A stretch of DNA of 64,000 nucleotides from the NCBI RefSeq assembly GCF_000152865.1, contig NZ_CH672390.1:1054001-1118000 (forward strand), written 5' to 3'. Of this stretch, positions 30,898-37,033 are shown one piece after another. The notes beneath the pieces are model-generated. The model was given only the letters and a program-made list of their open reading frames with translations, made no database searches and had not been told where the DNA came from. Source of the stretch: Erythrobacter sp. NAP1 (GTDB lineage Bacteria > Pseudomonadota > Alphaproteobacteria > Sphingomonadales > Sphingomonadaceae). The stretch's first letter is position 1; the number at the start of each line of letters is the position of its first letter. The position numbers and the translations under genes are program-made.

Positions 30898-32703
30898 ATG
30901 CCAACCTACACAGCCCCCACTCGCGACACGCGCTTCGTCGTCAATGAAATGCTCGACCTTGCAAGCTACGGAAACCTTCCGGGCTTCGAAAACGCGACCA
31001 CCGACATGATCGACACCGTGGTCAACGAAGCGGGCAAGTTCTGTTCGGAAGTCCTCGCTCCGATCAACCAGGCTGGGGATGAGCACGGTTGCACCCGTCA
31101 CGAGGATGGCAGCGTCACTACCCCTCCGGGCTTCAAGGAAGCCTACGACGCCTATGTCGAAGCGGGTTGGGGCACACTGGCGAAACCTGAAGAATTCGGC
31201 GGCCAGAACTTGCCTCACGTGCTTGGCTTTGTAGTTGAAGAGTTTACCGCTGCCGCCAACCAGGCTTTCGGGATGTATCCCGGCCTCACTAATGGTGCGA
31301 CTGCCGCGATCGAAGCTGCCGGTTCGCAGGAGCAGAAGGAAACCTACCTTCCCAAGATGATCTCGGGCGAGTGGTCCGGCACGATGAACCTGACCGAGCC
31401 GCATTGCGGCACCGACCTCGGCATGATCCGCACCAAGGCCGAACCGCAGGCCGATGGCAGCTTCAAAATCACCGGCACCAAGATCTTCATTTCCGCTGGT
31501 GAACACGACCTCACCAGCAACATCATTCACCTCGTTCTCGCAAAGACCCCGGGCGCTCCCGACAGCGCGAAGGGCATCTCGCTCTTCATCGTGCCGAAGT
31601 ACATTCTCGACGAGAACGGCGAACCGGGCGAGCGTAATGGTGTCGTCTGCGGCTCCATCGAGAAGAAGATGGGCATCCACGGCAACTCGACCTGCGTGCT
31701 CAACTACGACGAAGCCACCGGCTACATGGTCGGCGAGGAGAACAAAGGCCTTGCCGCGATGTTCGTGATGATGAACGCCGCGCGCCTCGGTGTCGGTATT
31801 CAGGGTCTCGCGCAGGCAGAGGTTTCGTATCAGAACGGCGTCAACTACGCTCTCGACCGTCGTCAGGGCCGCGCTCTCACCGGTCCGGCTGACAAGGATT
31901 CAAAAGCCGACCCGATCTTCGTTCACCCCGACGTTCGCCGGATGCTGATGGACGCCAAGGTATTCAACGAAGGCATGCGTGCACTGTGCCTGTGGGGCGC
32001 GCTTCAGGTTGACTTGACGCATAAGGCCCAGACCGAAGAAGAGCGCCAGCTCGCCGATGACCTCATCGGCTTGATGACCCCGGTCATCAAGGGTTATGGC
32101 ACCGACAAGGGCTACGACATCGCCAACAACATGCAGCAAGTCTATGGCGGCCACGGCTACATTAGCGAGTGGGGCATGGAGCAGTTCGTGCGCGACGCGC
32201 GTATCGCGATGATCTACGAAGGCACCAACGGCGTGCAGGCGATGGACCTTTGCGGTCGCAAGCTTGCCAGCAAGGGTGGCCGCGCAATCCAGGCCTTCTT
32301 CAAGATGCTCGACGACGAGATTTCGGAAGCCAAGGGCAATGAAGCTCTCGCTCCGCTCGCCGAAAAACTCGAAAAGGCATTGGGTGAGCAGAAGCAGGCG
32401 ACCATGTGGTTCATGCAGAATGCAATGGCGAACCCTAACCACCTCGGCGCGGGCGCGCACCACTACATGCACATCATGGGCATCGTGACGCTCGGCTTCT
32501 TCTGGCTCAAGATGGCCAAGGTCGCACAGGCGACTTTGGAAGCCGGGACCGAAGATAAAGCGTTCTATGAGGCAAAAATGACGTCTGCGTCCTATTATGC
32601 AGAGCGCTTTTTGCCCGATGCAGGGGCTCTGCGGCGCAAGCTTGAAGCTGGCAGCGACAATTTGATGGCGCTCCCGGAAGAGGCATTTGCCACCGCAGCT
32701 TGA
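30898..32703 (+). CDS. Acyl-CoA dehydrogenase, large (DmdC/AcdA-like) form
   Basis: FAD enzyme that oxidises acyl-CoA to enoyl-CoA. 601 residues, the longer subgroup with an extra C-terminal helical domain. N-terminal VNEMLDLASY, FAD/substrate motifs MNLTEPHCGTDLGMIRTKAE and KITGTKIFISAGEHDL, and C-terminal active-site region MQQVYGGHGYISEWGMEQFV with the catalytic Glu (YISE), then ARIAMIYEGTNGVQAMDLCG. Substrate may be 3-methylthiopropionyl-CoA or a medium/long acyl-CoA; sequence alone does not decide. Shares orientation and a short gap with the MerR gene. Ends in a strong terminator. Confidence 0.93.
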   Translation: MPTYTAPTRDTRFVVNEMLDLASYGNLPGFENATTDMIDTVVNEAGKFCSEVLAPINQAGDEHGCTRHEDGSVTTPPGFKEAYDAYVEAGWGTLAKPEEFGGQNLPHVLGFVVEEFTAAANQAFGMYPGLTNGATAAIEAAGSQEQKETYLPKMISGEWSGTMNLTEPHCGTDLGMIRTKAEPQADGSFKITGTKIFISAGEHDLTSNIIHLVLAKTPGAPDSAKGISLFIVPKYILDENGEPGERNGVVCGSIEKKMGIHGNSTCVLNYDEATGYMVGEENKGLAAMFVMMNAARLGVGIQGLAQAEVSYQNGVNYALDRRQGRALTGPADKDSKADPIFVHPDVRRMLMDAKVFNEGMRALCLWGALQVDLTHKAQTEEERQLADDLIGLMTPVIKGYGTDKGYDIANNMQQVYGGHGYISEWGMEQFVRDARIAMIYEGTNGVQAMDLCGRKLASKGGRAIQAFFKMLDDEISEAKGNEALAPLAEKLEKALGEQKQATMWFMQNAMANPNHLGAGAHHYMHIMGIVTLGFFWLKMAKVAQATLEAGTEDKAFYEAKMTSASYYAERFLPDAGALRRKLEAGSDNLMALPEEAFATAA

Positions 32704-32724
32704 CGGATTACTGAAGTCGTCACC

Positions 32725-32761
32725 GAGGTCCGGTTCTGGGGGGAACCGGACCTCTTCTTTT
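32725..32761 (+). terminator. Intrinsic terminator of the acyl-CoA dehydrogenase gene
   Basis: Perfect 12-bp stem GAGGTCCGGTTC (32725-32736) with GAACCGGACCTC (32743-32754), 6-nt loop TGGGGG, then TTCTTTT. 22 nt past the stop. Confidence 0.92.
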
Positions 32762-33082
32762 GTCCGCTGAGCAGGCGAGCTTCCACTAGATTTGGCGAGT
32801 CCGTTGCTGACCGCGAGGATAGACGGGCTCTCGTCGGCAGAACGAAATACTCGAAGCTGAGTCGAGGGTTCTAGGATCGATTCAACCTTAGCCAGTGATA
32901 GGCTGAGGGCCATGAATTCAAAAGCTATGAACAGACAAGTAAGTTAATGACAGTTAAAAATGGCTCCATTCGCAAATGAATTTGGCTAATAAGTCTGTAT
33001 TATGACTGCCAAAATTGTTGTCGCCTCCGTCCAATACTGAAAAACTATTTGAAACGACGATTGCGGTCGATGGGAGGAACCT
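32762..33082. other. Non-coding, AT-rich leader before the C25/propeller gene
   Basis: No convincing gene. The second half (about 32930-33060) is markedly AT-rich compared with the flanks, containing runs such as TAATAAGTCTGTATTATGAC, and should contain the promoter of the gene at 33083. I could not assign a -35/-10 pair with good spacing. A strong ribosome-binding site, GGGAGGA (33072-33078), ends it. The AT drop could also reflect recent acquisition. Confidence 0.5.
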
Positions 33083-36082
33083 ATGGCTGATATCGTCAAG
33101 CAGATTATGGACCGCTATGCTGGCTTTTCTTTGAAGTCCGGCGATGATGCTGACATCAATTCCCTTACCTATCTTGATTTCGAGGAGCCTGAAGATCAGC
33201 CGCCTATTGGTGGCCGTCTTGTTCTGGTCTTAGTGGAATCGCGTATCCTTGATGCGATCGATGGAGAGACGCCGGATCAAGATCTGCTCTCGCGGCTCGA
33301 AAGGTTTAAAGGAGATCTTCGAGCGGAGGGAATGCATACCCGCTTCATCCGTGCCGATCTCTACGATGGTGTCGATCATAAAGATGGTCTGACTCTTCTC
33401 GCCCTGCGCCGTTTCCTGATCGACATTCGGGAAGCATTCCCGAGGTTTGAGGGCGTGGTGCTTGTTGGTTCTTTCCCCGAAGCATCGCTTGTCCGCCGGT
33501 GGTCCTGGGCCTCTCCGCACGGAAATGCCAGTCCTCCCTGGACCGGCGGTACGCCCCACCTGACGATCGTGCCGGAATCGGTTTCGCGTCGCTCCGAGAT
33601 CGTTCTTGCGGATCTGACAGGTCAGTGGGAGCGGCTGTATCACAAGGAAGTTGAGATCGAGGCCTGGCTGGCCAATGCCACCAGCGACATGGGAGACGGT
33701 TGGCGCAACGGAGAGACGATCCTGGACTGCACCTTTACCTCGAACGACTACAAGGCCGGCAAGCTGACGTTCAAGGATTGCTTCTACGTTGACGATGCGA
33801 ACTTCACGGTGCTCAGGCGTGACGATAATGCCAATCCGCAGCTTATTGTGAGAGTGCGCACTCCGCTGCCTCATCCCGAAGTTGCGCCCGAGGATCGCAG
33901 CTCGGTCAACGTTACAGCACGACCGGATATCAGCGTGTCGAGGATCGATGCGAGCAACATTGCCTATGATCCTAGTGCGCGGAAGCAAGGCACCAACGGG
34001 GAACGTTTCGTCGACCCTCAGGGCGATCCGAATGTGGTTCCAAGCACAGATCCCAATTTGGTGCCAGCAAACCAGCGCGCCATGTTCACTTCGTTCAATC
34101 CATTGCTCGAGCGCCGTCTGTACAATCAATACTTTGATCGAAATCACCGCTTCCGAATTGGCGGTTGGTCACATCATGAATTGCAGGCTGGTGTCATCTC
34201 CGGGACTTCCGACTTTTCGGCGGCGAACTATCTCGGCGTTCTCAAAGAGGCGGCAACAAACTTCGGTCGCGATGTTACGGTCGATCAGGCAAGTCCCAAG
34301 GACTATGTCGATTTCCTCAAGACACCTCCCGCGTTCAAGTACATCATCGCCCACTCGAACTGGCAAATATCAGAGTTCGATGGGGACTACGAACCTGATG
34401 AGTTGCAATCCGCATGCGGCGGCACTCCCTTTCGTTGGAAATACGAAAGCGGCGCTTTTCGACCTAGCTTCGAAGGCCAGGGTAAGATCGTCGATTGGAC
34501 GATCCACCGCACTTTGTTCCAACATGGAACAAACAAGGATGCTCCGGGCTGCCTGATGATTCACGGCGGCTGCGACGTAAATACCGTAGAAGGCACGCAC
34601 AGCCACACTCACGATAGCAAGTATTACGCGCCGTGGCAGAATGCCGAAGGAATCCTGTTCGGATCGAGCGCGGTTGCGCTTTTGTCGCGCGCAAAAACCT
34701 TCAATGACGCACCGAGAGGTATGGGCGCCGGGCTTGGTACAGGAACACGGGCAAACTTCGGCAACGCCTGGCGGCATTATTACGATTTGCAAGCGGGCGA
34801 TGCGGCGCTGGCACCTGTGGTCGTCCAGAACAAGCGCGCGTATTTCTGGAGCATCACGGGCGATTGGACCTTGCGGCTCAGCAACAAGAACGGTCTCGGT
34901 CTACTTTCTCTCGAAGGAAGCGAGATCAGGGACGAGGTGATCCATCCGACTCAGGCGTGGATCGGTGCCTGGAACTTCGATTCTTCACGTGATCGCCACA
35001 AAGGCACAGGGAACTATGACGGCTCGGGCCAGGATAGCATAGCCGTACAGAGTGACTGGGGCATAGCGATAGTCAAGCACGATGGCACGCGATGGACCGC
35101 TCTCACAGTTGCCGAAAGAGATACTTGGTTCGGCCAGTGGCGCTGGGATGCGACAGTAAACCGGGGGCGCGATTCGATCAGAGCTACCGGTCATCTGACC
35201 GACAGGAGGCGCGACCAACTGCTTGTGACGAGTTCGTGGGGCATGGGCGTCTTGAGCCAGTCTGGTAATAGTATGACGTCGACCCGGACCTATGAATCGG
35301 GCACTCGGATCGGGGGCTGGGTCTATGATGTCGCGAAAACTGTTCATCGAGGCATCGGAGATTTCGACGGTGATGGTCATGACGAGGTGCTCGTCTCAAG
35401 CGGTTGGGGCATCGGCTTGCTTTCGCTCGAACACAATCGCGACATTGCTATGCACAAAACGGGTGACCGATTGGGATCATGGGTGCTCGACAGCTCGCGC
35501 AACCGGGTCGTTAGCATCGCGGATTTCGACGGGGATGGCAGCGACGAGATCATGATCCGGAGCGACTGGGGTATCGGCATTCTGAAACACGCAAATGGCG
35601 GCCTCAAATCCATCGCCATGCATGCTTGGGACAGTGATCTTGGAAATGGTTGCATCCTAAGCAACCGAAGCCAGTTCCGTCACACTGGACGTTTTCTTGG
35701 CGGAAACCAAGATGCAATGATCCTCGCACAAAACGATGCCTGGTTCATCCTGAAACTGTCCAACGATCGCCTGACGGTGGCCGCGAAGCTTTCCGAGGGC
35801 GAGCGTTATGGCGGATGGCGATTCAATCCTGCGCAAAACTACTCTCGCGCCGCGGTACGAATGCGCGGAAACGACAAGCATCAGATCGTGGTGAACAGTC
35901 GTTGGGGTATCGGCGTGCTCGAAGTCGATGAAAGCAGACCGACTGTCTGCCACGCACTGCACCCTTATGATGACGTGCTAGGAAACTGGCATCTGACCCA
36001 GACCGACTACATCGCCGGCCCGTGCAAAACTTCCGCAGCAAGCGATGCCGAGACTCTTATGATATGGAAACGACGCCCATAG
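33083..36082 (+). CDS. C25-like (gingipain/caspase-fold) protein with seven-bladed FG-GAP propeller
   Basis: 999 residues; no signal peptide or membrane helix. Residues ~40-145 look like a C25 lead subdomain: LLSRLERFKGDLRAEGM and EGVVLVGSFPEASLVRRWSW. A likely catalytic pair lies further on: His424 in YIIAHSNWQIS and Cys497 in MIHGGCDVNTVEG, followed by GILFGSSAVALLSRAKTF, as in clan CD peptidases. From about residue 593 to the end are seven ~50-residue repeats, each ending near xSxWGIGxL (SDWGIAIV, SSWGMGVL, SGWGIGLL, SDWGIGIL, SRWGIGVL and two degenerate copies). DFDGDGHDE and DFDGDGSDE are FG-GAP/VCBS calcium loops; the last strand (LGNWHL...MIWK) would close a propeller. Protease activity is inferred. 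Orphan: terminator-bounded upstream, cysK convergent downstream. Confidence 0.65.
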   Translation: MADIVKQIMDRYAGFSLKSGDDADINSLTYLDFEEPEDQPPIGGRLVLVLVESRILDAIDGETPDQDLLSRLERFKGDLRAEGMHTRFIRADLYDGVDHKDGLTLLALRRFLIDIREAFPRFEGVVLVGSFPEASLVRRWSWASPHGNASPPWTGGTPHLTIVPESVSRRSEIVLADLTGQWERLYHKEVEIEAWLANATSDMGDGWRNGETILDCTFTSNDYKAGKLTFKDCFYVDDANFTVLRRDDNANPQLIVRVRTPLPHPEVAPEDRSSVNVTARPDISVSRIDASNIAYDPSARKQGTNGERFVDPQGDPNVVPSTDPNLVPANQRAMFTSFNPLLERRLYNQYFDRNHRFRIGGWSHHELQAGVISGTSDFSAANYLGVLKEAATNFGRDVTVDQASPKDYVDFLKTPPAFKYIIAHSNWQISEFDGDYEPDELQSACGGTPFRWKYESGAFRPSFEGQGKIVDWTIHRTLFQHGTNKDAPGCLMIHGGCDVNTVEGTHSHTHDSKYYAPWQNAEGILFGSSAVALLSRAKTFNDAPRGMGAGLGTGTRANFGNAWRHYYDLQAGDAALAPVVVQNKRAYFWSITGDWTLRLSNKNGLGLLSLEGSEIRDEVIHPTQAWIGAWNFDSSRDRHKGTGNYDGSGQDSIAVQSDWGIAIVKHDGTRWTALTVAERDTWFGQWRWDATVNRGRDSIRATGHLTDRRRDQLLVTSSWGMGVLSQSGNSMTSTRTYESGTRIGGWVYDVAKTVHRGIGDFDGDGHDEVLVSSGWGIGLLSLEHNRDIAMHKTGDRLGSWVLDSSRNRVVSIADFDGDGSDEIMIRSDWGIGILKHANGGLKSIAMHAWDSDLGNGCILSNRSQFRHTGRFLGGNQDAMILAQNDAWFILKLSNDRLTVAAKLSEGERYGGWRFNPAQNYSRAAVRMRGNDKHQIVVNSRWGIGVLEVDESRPTVCHALHPYDDVLGNWHLTQTDYIAGPCKTSAASDAETLMIWKRRP

Positions 36083-36112
36083 GACGGCCTTGCTGGTGCG
36101 AGGCTTCTCGAC

Positions 36113-37029
<917 letters not shown>

Positions 37030-37033
<4 letters not shown>

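What the first reader, a model, noticed from the sequence alone, without database searches (positions are those of the whole stretch)
33083..36082. Orphan 999-residue protein fusing a gingipain/caspase-like domain to a seven-bladed FG-GAP-type propeller
Seen: a C25-style N-terminal region (LVGSFPEASL), a plausible His424/Cys497 dyad (AHSN; HGGCDVN) followed by GILFGSSAVALLSR, then seven ~50-residue repeats ending near SxWGIGxL with two DFDGDGxDE loops and a closing partial blade. Known: C25 and other clan CD peptidases use a His-Cys dyad; FG-GAP/VCBS repeats fold as propellers and bind Ca. Inferred: a calcium-loaded propeller that recognises a substrate and directs a cytosolic or non-classically secreted protease. 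No signal peptide, membrane helix or partner gene is visible, and the leader is unusually AT-rich. I have not seen this architecture described.
Basis: partly seen in the sequence, partly recalled or inferred. Interest (0 to 1): 0.78.

Follow-up and report, generated by a model that had tools for sequence, protein, structure and literature searches.

The report
Protease fused to lectin-like propeller
A rare bacterial gene encodes what looks, by predicted fold, like an unrecognised relative of the gingipain and caspase protein-cutting enzymes joined to a seven-bladed propeller resembling a mushroom sugar-binding protein, which suggests a cutter that is tethered to its target by the propeller.

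Summary
The ORF at 33083-36082 (999 aa) is intact and under purifying selection (dN/dS about 0.06 against a same-genus orthologue). It is not an orphan: forty loci encode relatives of its first 600 residues. None of 32 members scanned matches a curated Pfam or NCBIfam family credibly. His424 is kept in 39 of 39 rows that reach it, Cys497 in 41 of 41. AlphaFold2 on 37 rows (mean pLDDT 86), searched with Foldseek, gives the mushroom lectin PVL as best hit and gingipain RgpB as the only caspase-like fold among the 50 hits shown. Comparison with true C25 sequences is not significant, so I call it C25-like, not C25. The whole architecture also occurs in two Chitinophagaceae genomes and a myxobacterial MAG; the same propeller type sits on an S8 subtilase and on an HExxHxxGxxH protein. 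Best reading: a clan-CD-type cysteine peptidase docked to its target by a PVL/integrin-like propeller, patchily transferred between bacteria. Activity, ligand and substrate are unknown, and the sugar-binding Asn known from PVL relatives is missing from this copy.

The parts
33083..36082 (+). CDS, 999 aa: C25-like cysteine peptidase domain plus seven-bladed FG-GAP/PVL-like propeller
33072..33077 (+). GGGAGG, likely ribosome-binding site 5 bases before the ATG
   Evidence: sequence; inference
32725..32754 (+). 13-bp-stem terminator-like hairpin between the upstream gene and this one; suggests a separate transcript
   Evidence: consensus match only
32920..33082 (+). AT-rich leader (38.7% GC) that presumably holds the promoter; no sigma-70 consensus site found
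33083..34882 (+). C25-like domain, residues 1-600
33128..33163 (+). degenerate form of the DxDxDGxxE loop found at the start of most relatives
34352..34354 (+). His424, invariant (39 of 39 rows that reach it), just after predicted strand 418-422
34571..34573 (+). Cys497, invariant (41 of 41), just after predicted strand 490-494
34859..34879 (+). GDWTLRL motif near the end of the domain; in 36 of 40 relatives the open frame ends within 16 residues of the match
34883..34951 (+). linker, residues 601-623, pLDDT under 50
34952..36079 (+). propeller, residues 624-999: six four-stranded blades (638-678, 698-738, 754-792, 808-848, 864-904, 920-961) and a closing blade made of 975-996 with 624-633
   Evidence: blade limits read from predicted strands
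35360..35386 (+). DFDGDGHDE calcium-type loop, residues 760-768
35522..35548 (+). DFDGDGSDE calcium-type loop, residues 814-822
32001..36250 (.). block 95-99.6% identical to genome G1341 in steps of 250 bases, with flanks at 64-95% (median 84%): recent exchange between species

Best explanation
The protein is a cysteine peptidase of the caspase/gingipain (clan CD) fold, from a family absent from Pfam and NCBIfam, joined by a flexible linker to a PVL/integrin-like seven-bladed propeller. His424 and Cys497 form the catalytic dyad (inferred from invariance and position). The propeller, held by calcium in two canonical loops (inferred), binds a ligand (a glycan, or a glycosylated or plain protein partner) and so concentrates the peptidase on its substrate. 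Most relatives whose start can be read carry an export-signal-like leader and an N-terminal calcium loop; this branch has lost both, so the protein is probably made in the cytosol and acts there or after cell lysis. The gene moves patchily: 2 of 114 genomes of the genus carry it, and its closest relatives outside the genus are in Bacteroidota. Shown by calls: intact gene under purifying selection, fold resemblance of the model, invariant dyad, repeats, patchy distribution, recent exchange. Inferred: proteolytic activity, ligand binding, calcium binding, location, purpose.
For: His424 39 of 39 and Cys497 41 of 41 rows. Both follow predicted beta strands, as the dyad does in gingipain R (PMC4357240 section 13). 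Foldseek hits to RgpB at E 6.2e-7 and to PVL at E 1.2e-9. dN 0.0030, dS 0.0505 between the window gene and its orthologue in G1341. Same architecture in L012 (44% identity over the first domain), L062 (41% over residues 3-975 of the L012 query) and L020. The propeller type recurs on a PF00082 subtilase (L067) and on a protein with HEALHQQGYRH (L116). GC3 is 0.62 against 0.73-0.77 in three nearby genes; 2 of 114 genus genomes carry the gene.
Against: No activity data. hhalign against 21 PF01364 proteins is not significant (probability 0.6-1.7%, E 0.03-0.095); for the C-terminal half 15 of 100 column shuffles scored as high or higher. The RgpB superposition has a high rmsd (9.9-11.1 A over 744-756 columns including gaps) and 8-9% identity, and the table does not print which part of the model is aligned. 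I had no coordinates, so the His-Cys distance was not measured. The Asn/Asp needed for GlcNAc binding in AAL2 has no counterpart at W-7 or W-8 in the 6 inter-blade segments that the script listed for this copy, against 7 of 7 Asn in L067. The third carrier of the propeller outside the C25-like proteins (L066) is not a recognised peptidase.
Confidence: 0.6

Rival explanations
1. Chimerolectin used in defence: a protein stored in the cytosol that, after the cell is eaten or lysed, binds glycans of a grazer or competitor through the propeller and then cuts nearby proteins, working like the fungal lectin-protease MOA.
For: The best fold matches are PVL and AAL2, mushroom GlcNAc lectins. No export leader seen in this branch. 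MOA is a chimerolectin and a Ca2+/Mn2+-dependent protease (abstract) and is tabled among fungal defence proteins with nematodes as target (passages). The gene is patchy and exchanged between species.
Against: The GlcNAc-contacting Asn/Asp is absent at the expected place in this copy. By sequence the propeller's weak PDB hits are YesX and integrins, not PVL, and other Foldseek hits near the top are ordinary protein-binding propellers such as DDB1. No toxicity evidence; the neighbouring genes look like housekeeping genes by eye.
Confidence: 0.15
2. Extracellular nutrient protease released by an unknown route; the propeller anchors it to particles or to the cell surface.
For: 29 of 29 rows with a canonical calcium loop have a signal-like leader. 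L020 has a leader and a pAdhesive_15 tail. L116 looks like a lipoprotein (motif recalled). The L012 gene sits beside a DUF6055-CBM_3 gene.
Against: The window, L077, L012 and L062 show no such leader, and their loss of the N-terminal calcium loop would fit a calcium-poor place.
Confidence: 0.2
3. Non-catalytic scaffold: the caspase-like fold is kept for binding only.
For: The family is far from every known peptidase family by sequence.
Against: His and Cys are invariant across relatives from at least seven phyla, which a pseudo-enzyme would not need.
Confidence: 0.05

Closest known systems
Gingipain R (RgpB), peptidase family C25, PDB 4ief and 1cvr
   Same: Foldseek match E 6.2e-7 and 1.5e-6; His and Cys after two core strands; by eye a similar order of motifs as in the C25 consensus
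   Different: No PF01364 match in 32 members; profile comparison not significant; no large prodomain before the fold; GDW in place of GDP in most members; a propeller in place of the Ig-like domain
Psathyrella velutina lectin (PVL) and AAL2, seven-bladed GlcNAc lectins
   Same: Best Foldseek hits; blades of four strands, closing blade made of both ends, calcium-type loops, and a G-x-Trp segment between blades
   Different: 13-16% identity and TM 0.55-0.57 on the target; not found by sequence; GlcNAc-binding Asn/Asp absent at the expected place in this copy
Marasmius oreades agglutinin (MOA), fungal chimerolectin
   Same: Cysteine protease joined to a lectin-type domain in one chain (abstract)
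   Different: Papain-like protease and a lectin domain usually of RicinB type in such proteins (passages); fungal; unrelated folds
Prokaryotic metacaspases with WD40 repeats (family C14B)
   Same: Caspase-fold peptidase combined with a propeller-type repeat domain (passages of PMC3501461)
   Different: Only FG-GAP models match here; RgpB is the only caspase-like fold among the 50 hits shown; 'FG-GAP', 'gingipain' and 'propeller' do not occur in that paper's main text

Membership tests
Peptidase family C25 (PF01364) | Match to the family's profile | tested here: not met
   No hit in the window protein or in any of 32 members; the same model rang in 27 of 30 Chitinophagaceae genomes
Peptidase family C25 (PF01364) | Sequence-profile similarity to bona fide members | tested here: inconclusive
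   hhalign E 0.03-0.095, probability 0.6-1.7%; for the C-terminal half 15 of 100 shuffles did as well
Peptidase family C25 (PF01364) | Gingipain-type fold | tested here: met
   4ief_D and 1cvr, TM 0.57 and 0.55 on the target, rmsd 9.9 and 11.1 A, on a model of mean pLDDT 86
Clan CD cysteine peptidases | His and Cys dyad after two core strands, conserved | tested here: met
   His424 39 of 39, Cys497 41 of 41; strands 418-422 and 490-494. Their distance in the model was not measured
Clan CD cysteine peptidases | Peptidase activity after a defined P1 residue | not testable with these tools
   needs purified protein
Metacaspase/orthocaspase (C14B) | Match to the caspase-domain profile | tested here: not met
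   Pfam scan at E up to 10 lists only two FG-GAP models
FG-GAP propeller (PF01839) | Score over the gathering cut-off | tested here: met
   26.8 bits against 22.1
PVL-type lectin | Seven-bladed propeller with four strands per blade | tested here: met
   predicted strands; PVL is the top Foldseek hit; closure inferred from strand order
PVL-type lectin | Asn/Asp in the inter-blade segment that bonds GlcNAc | tested here: not met
   0 of 6 listed segments have Asn/Asp at W-7 or W-8; L067 has Asn at W-7 in 7 of 7. The equivalence of W-7 here to W-8 in AAL2 is my inference, and Asp lies one to three places nearer the Trp position in four blades
PVL-type lectin | Sugar binding | not testable with these tools
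   needs a glycan array

The most novel reading that the evidence does not exclude
The WGIG-type propeller is a bacterial protease-pairing module, fused to cysteine (C25-like), serine (S8) and probably metallo (HExxHxxGxxH) peptidases. In the window's branch it makes a cytosolic, horizontally exchanged lectin-protease chimera, a bacterial counterpart of fungal MOA, whose peptidase half founds a new clan CD family spread over at least seven phyla besides the window's own.
Probability: 0.15. Interest if true: 0.82.

Novelty: new variant of a known kind. Interest (0 to 1): 0.6.

Why it matters
It reveals a broadly distributed caspase/gingipain-fold family that Pfam and NCBIfam do not recognise, with an alignment that makes its dyad and substrate preference directly testable. 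It also shows a propeller built like fungal and animal adhesion propellers combined with more than one peptidase class. If active, it would add a bacterial case to the natural lectin-protease chimeras.

Tried and rejected
Structure prediction from the single sequence failed (mean pLDDT 31.7). Scans of genome contigs and viral contigs with exact peptides of the window protein found no relative, nor did three further viral-contig scans. Plasmids and phages gave no match; the one plasmid match at E = 4 was rejected as chance. Weak first-domain hits in G1117 and G824 (E 7.2e-4 and 3.3e-3) were rejected: 55-62 residues, one with a stop. Generic FG-GAP proteins in three genomes of the class and L117 (GH16 with FG-GAP) were set aside as another propeller type; they also score with the blade HMM, but much lower (E 8.8e-12 to 3.1e-7 against 9.8e-38 for L116). 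A weak hit in G1204 (E 9.7e-6) was not followed. hhalign of the family against C25 in local, global and half-domain form gave no significant link. The viral fold library returned propeller-type and mostly unnamed or uncharacterised proteins, not followed. My first alignment used wrong reading frames for some GC-rich loci and was replaced. Papers: searches showed no description of this architecture, judged from their listings; the library holds open-licence papers only, so this is no proof of absence from print. The names of the two flanking genes are read from their sequences by eye, not from a family search.
Full report
WHAT IS THERE. The window holds an intact ORF at 33083-36082, 999 codons, ATG start, with GGGAGG five bases upstream; the genome has one copy. 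A terminator-like hairpin with a 13-bp stem at 32725-32754 lies between it and the gene upstream, which reads by eye as an acyl-CoA dehydrogenase; no sigma-70 consensus promoter was found. Downstream it converges with a gene at 36113-37033 that reads as a cysteine synthase (both names by eye). By Pfam the protein matches only FG-GAP repeats (PF01839 26.8 bits, cut-off 22.1). NCBIfam gave one weak match far below its cut-off, and phmmer found nothing in the PDB.

NOT AN ORPHAN. Searches with the exact sequence failed, and samples of 397 genomes of the family, 385 of the class and 398 of the phylum gave no credible second copy of the first domain. A motif-steered pattern search of genome contigs (84,980 species) matched 81 stretches, of which 40 encode relatives by tblastn, with E-values from 1e-119 to 2e-11. 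Each match lies in one open frame. Most loci are Planctomycetota or Armatimonadota MAGs; others are labelled Bacteroidota, Myxococcota, Bdellovibrionota, Lentisphaerota and Verrucomicrobiota, and one is a Geobacteraceae MAG. In 36 of 40 the open frame ends within 16 residues of the match, near the GDWTLRL motif, so this is mostly a free-standing domain of about 600 residues.

THE CATALYTIC PAIR. In the alignment of the window with the 40 relatives, His424 is kept in 39 of 39 rows that reach it (two fragments start after it) and Cys497 in 41 of 41. Gly496, Arg536, Pro544, Gly560, Trp589, Gly593 and Asp594 are also invariant.

FAMILY STATUS. I scanned 32 members (the window plus 31 of 40 relatives) against Pfam and NCBIfam at E up to 1. 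No peptidase family appears; in Pfam the only names that recur are weak EF-hand models (best E 0.014), and in NCBIfam none recurs (best E 0.038). A profile of these 32 finds nothing credible in the PDB by sequence (best E 1.4). I aligned 21 of the 43 PF01364 places found in 30 Chitinophagaceae genomes. Profile-profile comparison gave E 0.03-0.095 with probability 0.6-1.7% over 55-57 columns; a global run aligned only 8 columns; for the C-terminal half 15 of 100 column shuffles scored as high or higher. By eye the order of motifs agrees with the C25 consensus, but that is not a test.

FOLD. AlphaFold2 on 37 rows (the window plus 36 of 40 loci) gave mean pLDDT 86.2 and pTM 0.73; the only segment of three or more residues below 50 is 601-623. 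Foldseek against the PDB reports 220 hits at E <= 0.001, of which 50 were shown. The top is PVL (2bwm, E 1.2e-9, TM 0.57 on the target, 15% identity), with AAL2 close behind (4tqm, 6.0e-9). Other high ranks are chains of a Photorhabdus Tc complex, DDB1 and BBSome proteins, that is, large propeller proteins. Gingipain RgpB (4ief_D, 6.2e-7; 1cvr, 1.5e-6) is the only caspase-like fold among those shown. Its rmsd is large (9.9-11.1 A over gapped alignments), and the table prints no aligned ranges, so the assignment of RgpB to the first domain and of PVL to the second is inferred. His424 and Cys497 each follow a predicted strand (418-422 and 490-494), as the dyad of gingipain R does (PMC4357240, section 13 read). 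The strands fit six four-stranded blades and a seventh made of 624-633 with 975-996.

THE PROPELLER. A blade HMM from L067 and L012 (13 blades, window not included) finds five blades in the window protein at i-E <= 1.6e-10 (whole E 3.5e-64); 11 of 200 shuffles gave any hit, best 0.065. In AAL2, a PVL relative, GlcNAc is held by an Asn/Asp, a GG-Trp segment and a His; the Asn counterparts were needed for binding (PMC4483166, passages read). In the bacterial family the matching segment is NGTRFGGW. The script gives Asn at W-7 in 7 of 7 segments of L067 and in 4 of 7 listed segments of L012 (one listed segment is mis-picked; the true one, read by eye, also has Asn); L020, L062 and L066 are mixed, with some mis-picked segments. 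In the window and in its orthologue none of the 6 listed segments has Asn or Asp at W-7 or W-8, and the seventh blade has no Trp. In four blades an Asp lies nearer the Trp position, so a shifted contact is not excluded. The lectin-like scaffold is there, but the known sugar contact is not at its usual place in this copy. By sequence the propeller profile's PDB hits are short and weak (YesX 9.7e-4, integrin alpha-V 1.6e-3) and do not include PVL.

OTHER CARRIERS OF THE SAME PROPELLER. Two-domain relatives: L012 (Chitinophaga MAG), L062 (genome G1129, 41% over residues 3-975 of the L012 query) and L020 (Myxococcota MAG, with a pAdhesive_15 tail). The propeller without the C25-like domain is joined to a PF00082 subtilase in G101, to an 805-aa protein with HEALHQQGYRH in G1574 (L116; the metallopeptidase reading of that motif is recalled, Pfam gave none) and to an 1812-aa protein of unknown kind in G1320. 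The sample is small: of these three, two look like peptidases. The two-domain architecture is rare: 2 of 195 Chitinophagaceae genomes (L012 and L062; two more have propeller-only matches), 1 of 79 genomes of the L012 genus (its own) and 1 of 207 genomes of the L020 phylum (its own; two more have propeller-only matches).

LEADER AND CALCIUM LOOP. Of 44 rows examined, 29 have a canonical DxDxDG loop before the fold, and all 29 have a hydrophobic leader upstream (best 12-residue average at least 1.47). Of the 15 others, the window, L077, L012 and L062 show neither (the window and L077 start too close to the fold to hold a leader; L012 scores 1.12 and L062 1.27); L049 has a near-canonical loop behind a long N-terminal extension; ten cannot be judged (seven start inside the domain, three have unreadable N-termini). 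The score gap is narrow and the method is a heuristic, not a signal-peptide predictor. The four form one clade (100/100); whether L020 shares the same fusion event is not settled (two changes on the tree, one origin not ruled out). Loss of leader and calcium loop together suggests a cytosolic protein (inference).

TRANSFER AND SELECTION. Two of 114 genomes of the genus carry the gene, the window's own included. Between them, positions 32501-36000 are 97-99.6% identical in steps of 250 bases, while the flanks outside 32001-36250 are at 64-95% (median 84%); the protein is 99.3% identical with dN 0.0030 and dS 0.0505. So a block was recently exchanged and is under purifying selection. I took the region from 7 genus genomes: one has the gene, and in six the flanking genes are conserved but the gene is absent. 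Three of the six slots were read: one holds a TPR-CHAT protein, and two hold a penicillin-amidase-type protein, one of them with further genes; the other three, shorter, were not read. GC3 is 0.62 against 0.75, 0.77 and 0.73 in three nearby genes. The nearest relatives by tree path outside the genus are L012 and L062 of the Chitinophagaceae, so transfer between phyla is likely; its direction is not known.

HOW IT MOST LIKELY WORKS. A cysteine peptidase is tethered by a linker to a propeller that docks on a ligand; calcium in two DFDGDG loops holds the propeller. Peptidase activity is inferred from the invariant dyad and the fold, docking from the nearest folds and from the recurrence of the module on other peptidases. 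The defence reading is modelled on MOA, a chimerolectin and Ca2+/Mn2+-dependent protease (PMC8244254, abstract; PMC6272156, passages); it is possible but untested.

PAPERS. A survey of prokaryotic caspase homologues (PMC3501461) does not contain 'FG-GAP', 'gingipain' or 'propeller' in its main text. A review of chimerolectins (PMC12355970) was searched by terms; the 12 passages shown of 13 describe no bacterial protease-propeller of this kind. Of PMC4357240 I saw passages and section 13, of PMC4483166 and PMC6272156 passages, of PMC8244254 the abstract and outline. All other papers were seen only as search listings (one search listed none).

VERDICT. A real and well-built new variant: a new clan-CD-like family plus a lectin-like propeller, not a new principle. 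Interest 0.6.

Noticed in passing
L079:2073-5123 (-), same slot as window 32703-36113: In another genome of the genus the slot between the two flanking genes holds a TPR-CHAT protein (PF12770; CHAT as a caspase-type fold is recalled). In two further genomes (L078, L081) it holds a penicillin-amidase-type protein (PF01804). The slot looks like a site of variable content.
   Followed up: partly
L068:1841-3940 (-): The Oligoflexia genome of L049 carries a second, 699-aa member of the C25-like family with a leader and a canonical calcium loop.
   Followed up: partly
L065:8977-10674 (-): Directly beside the full-length homologue in G1129 lies a PF00082 subtilase gene, the same peptidase class that is fused to the propeller in G101.
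   Followed up: no
L012:3139-7377 (-): Divergent neighbour of the Chitinophaga homologue: secreted-looking DUF6055 protein with CBM_3 and a sub-threshold F5/F8-type match.
   Followed up: no
L066:3018-8456 (+): 1812-aa protein of unknown kind that ends in the same WGIG propeller, behind another large protein of unknown kind.
   Followed up: no
L043:77-1636 (+): A family member with a C-terminal extension of about 250 residues that matches no Pfam family at E 0.001.
   Followed up: no
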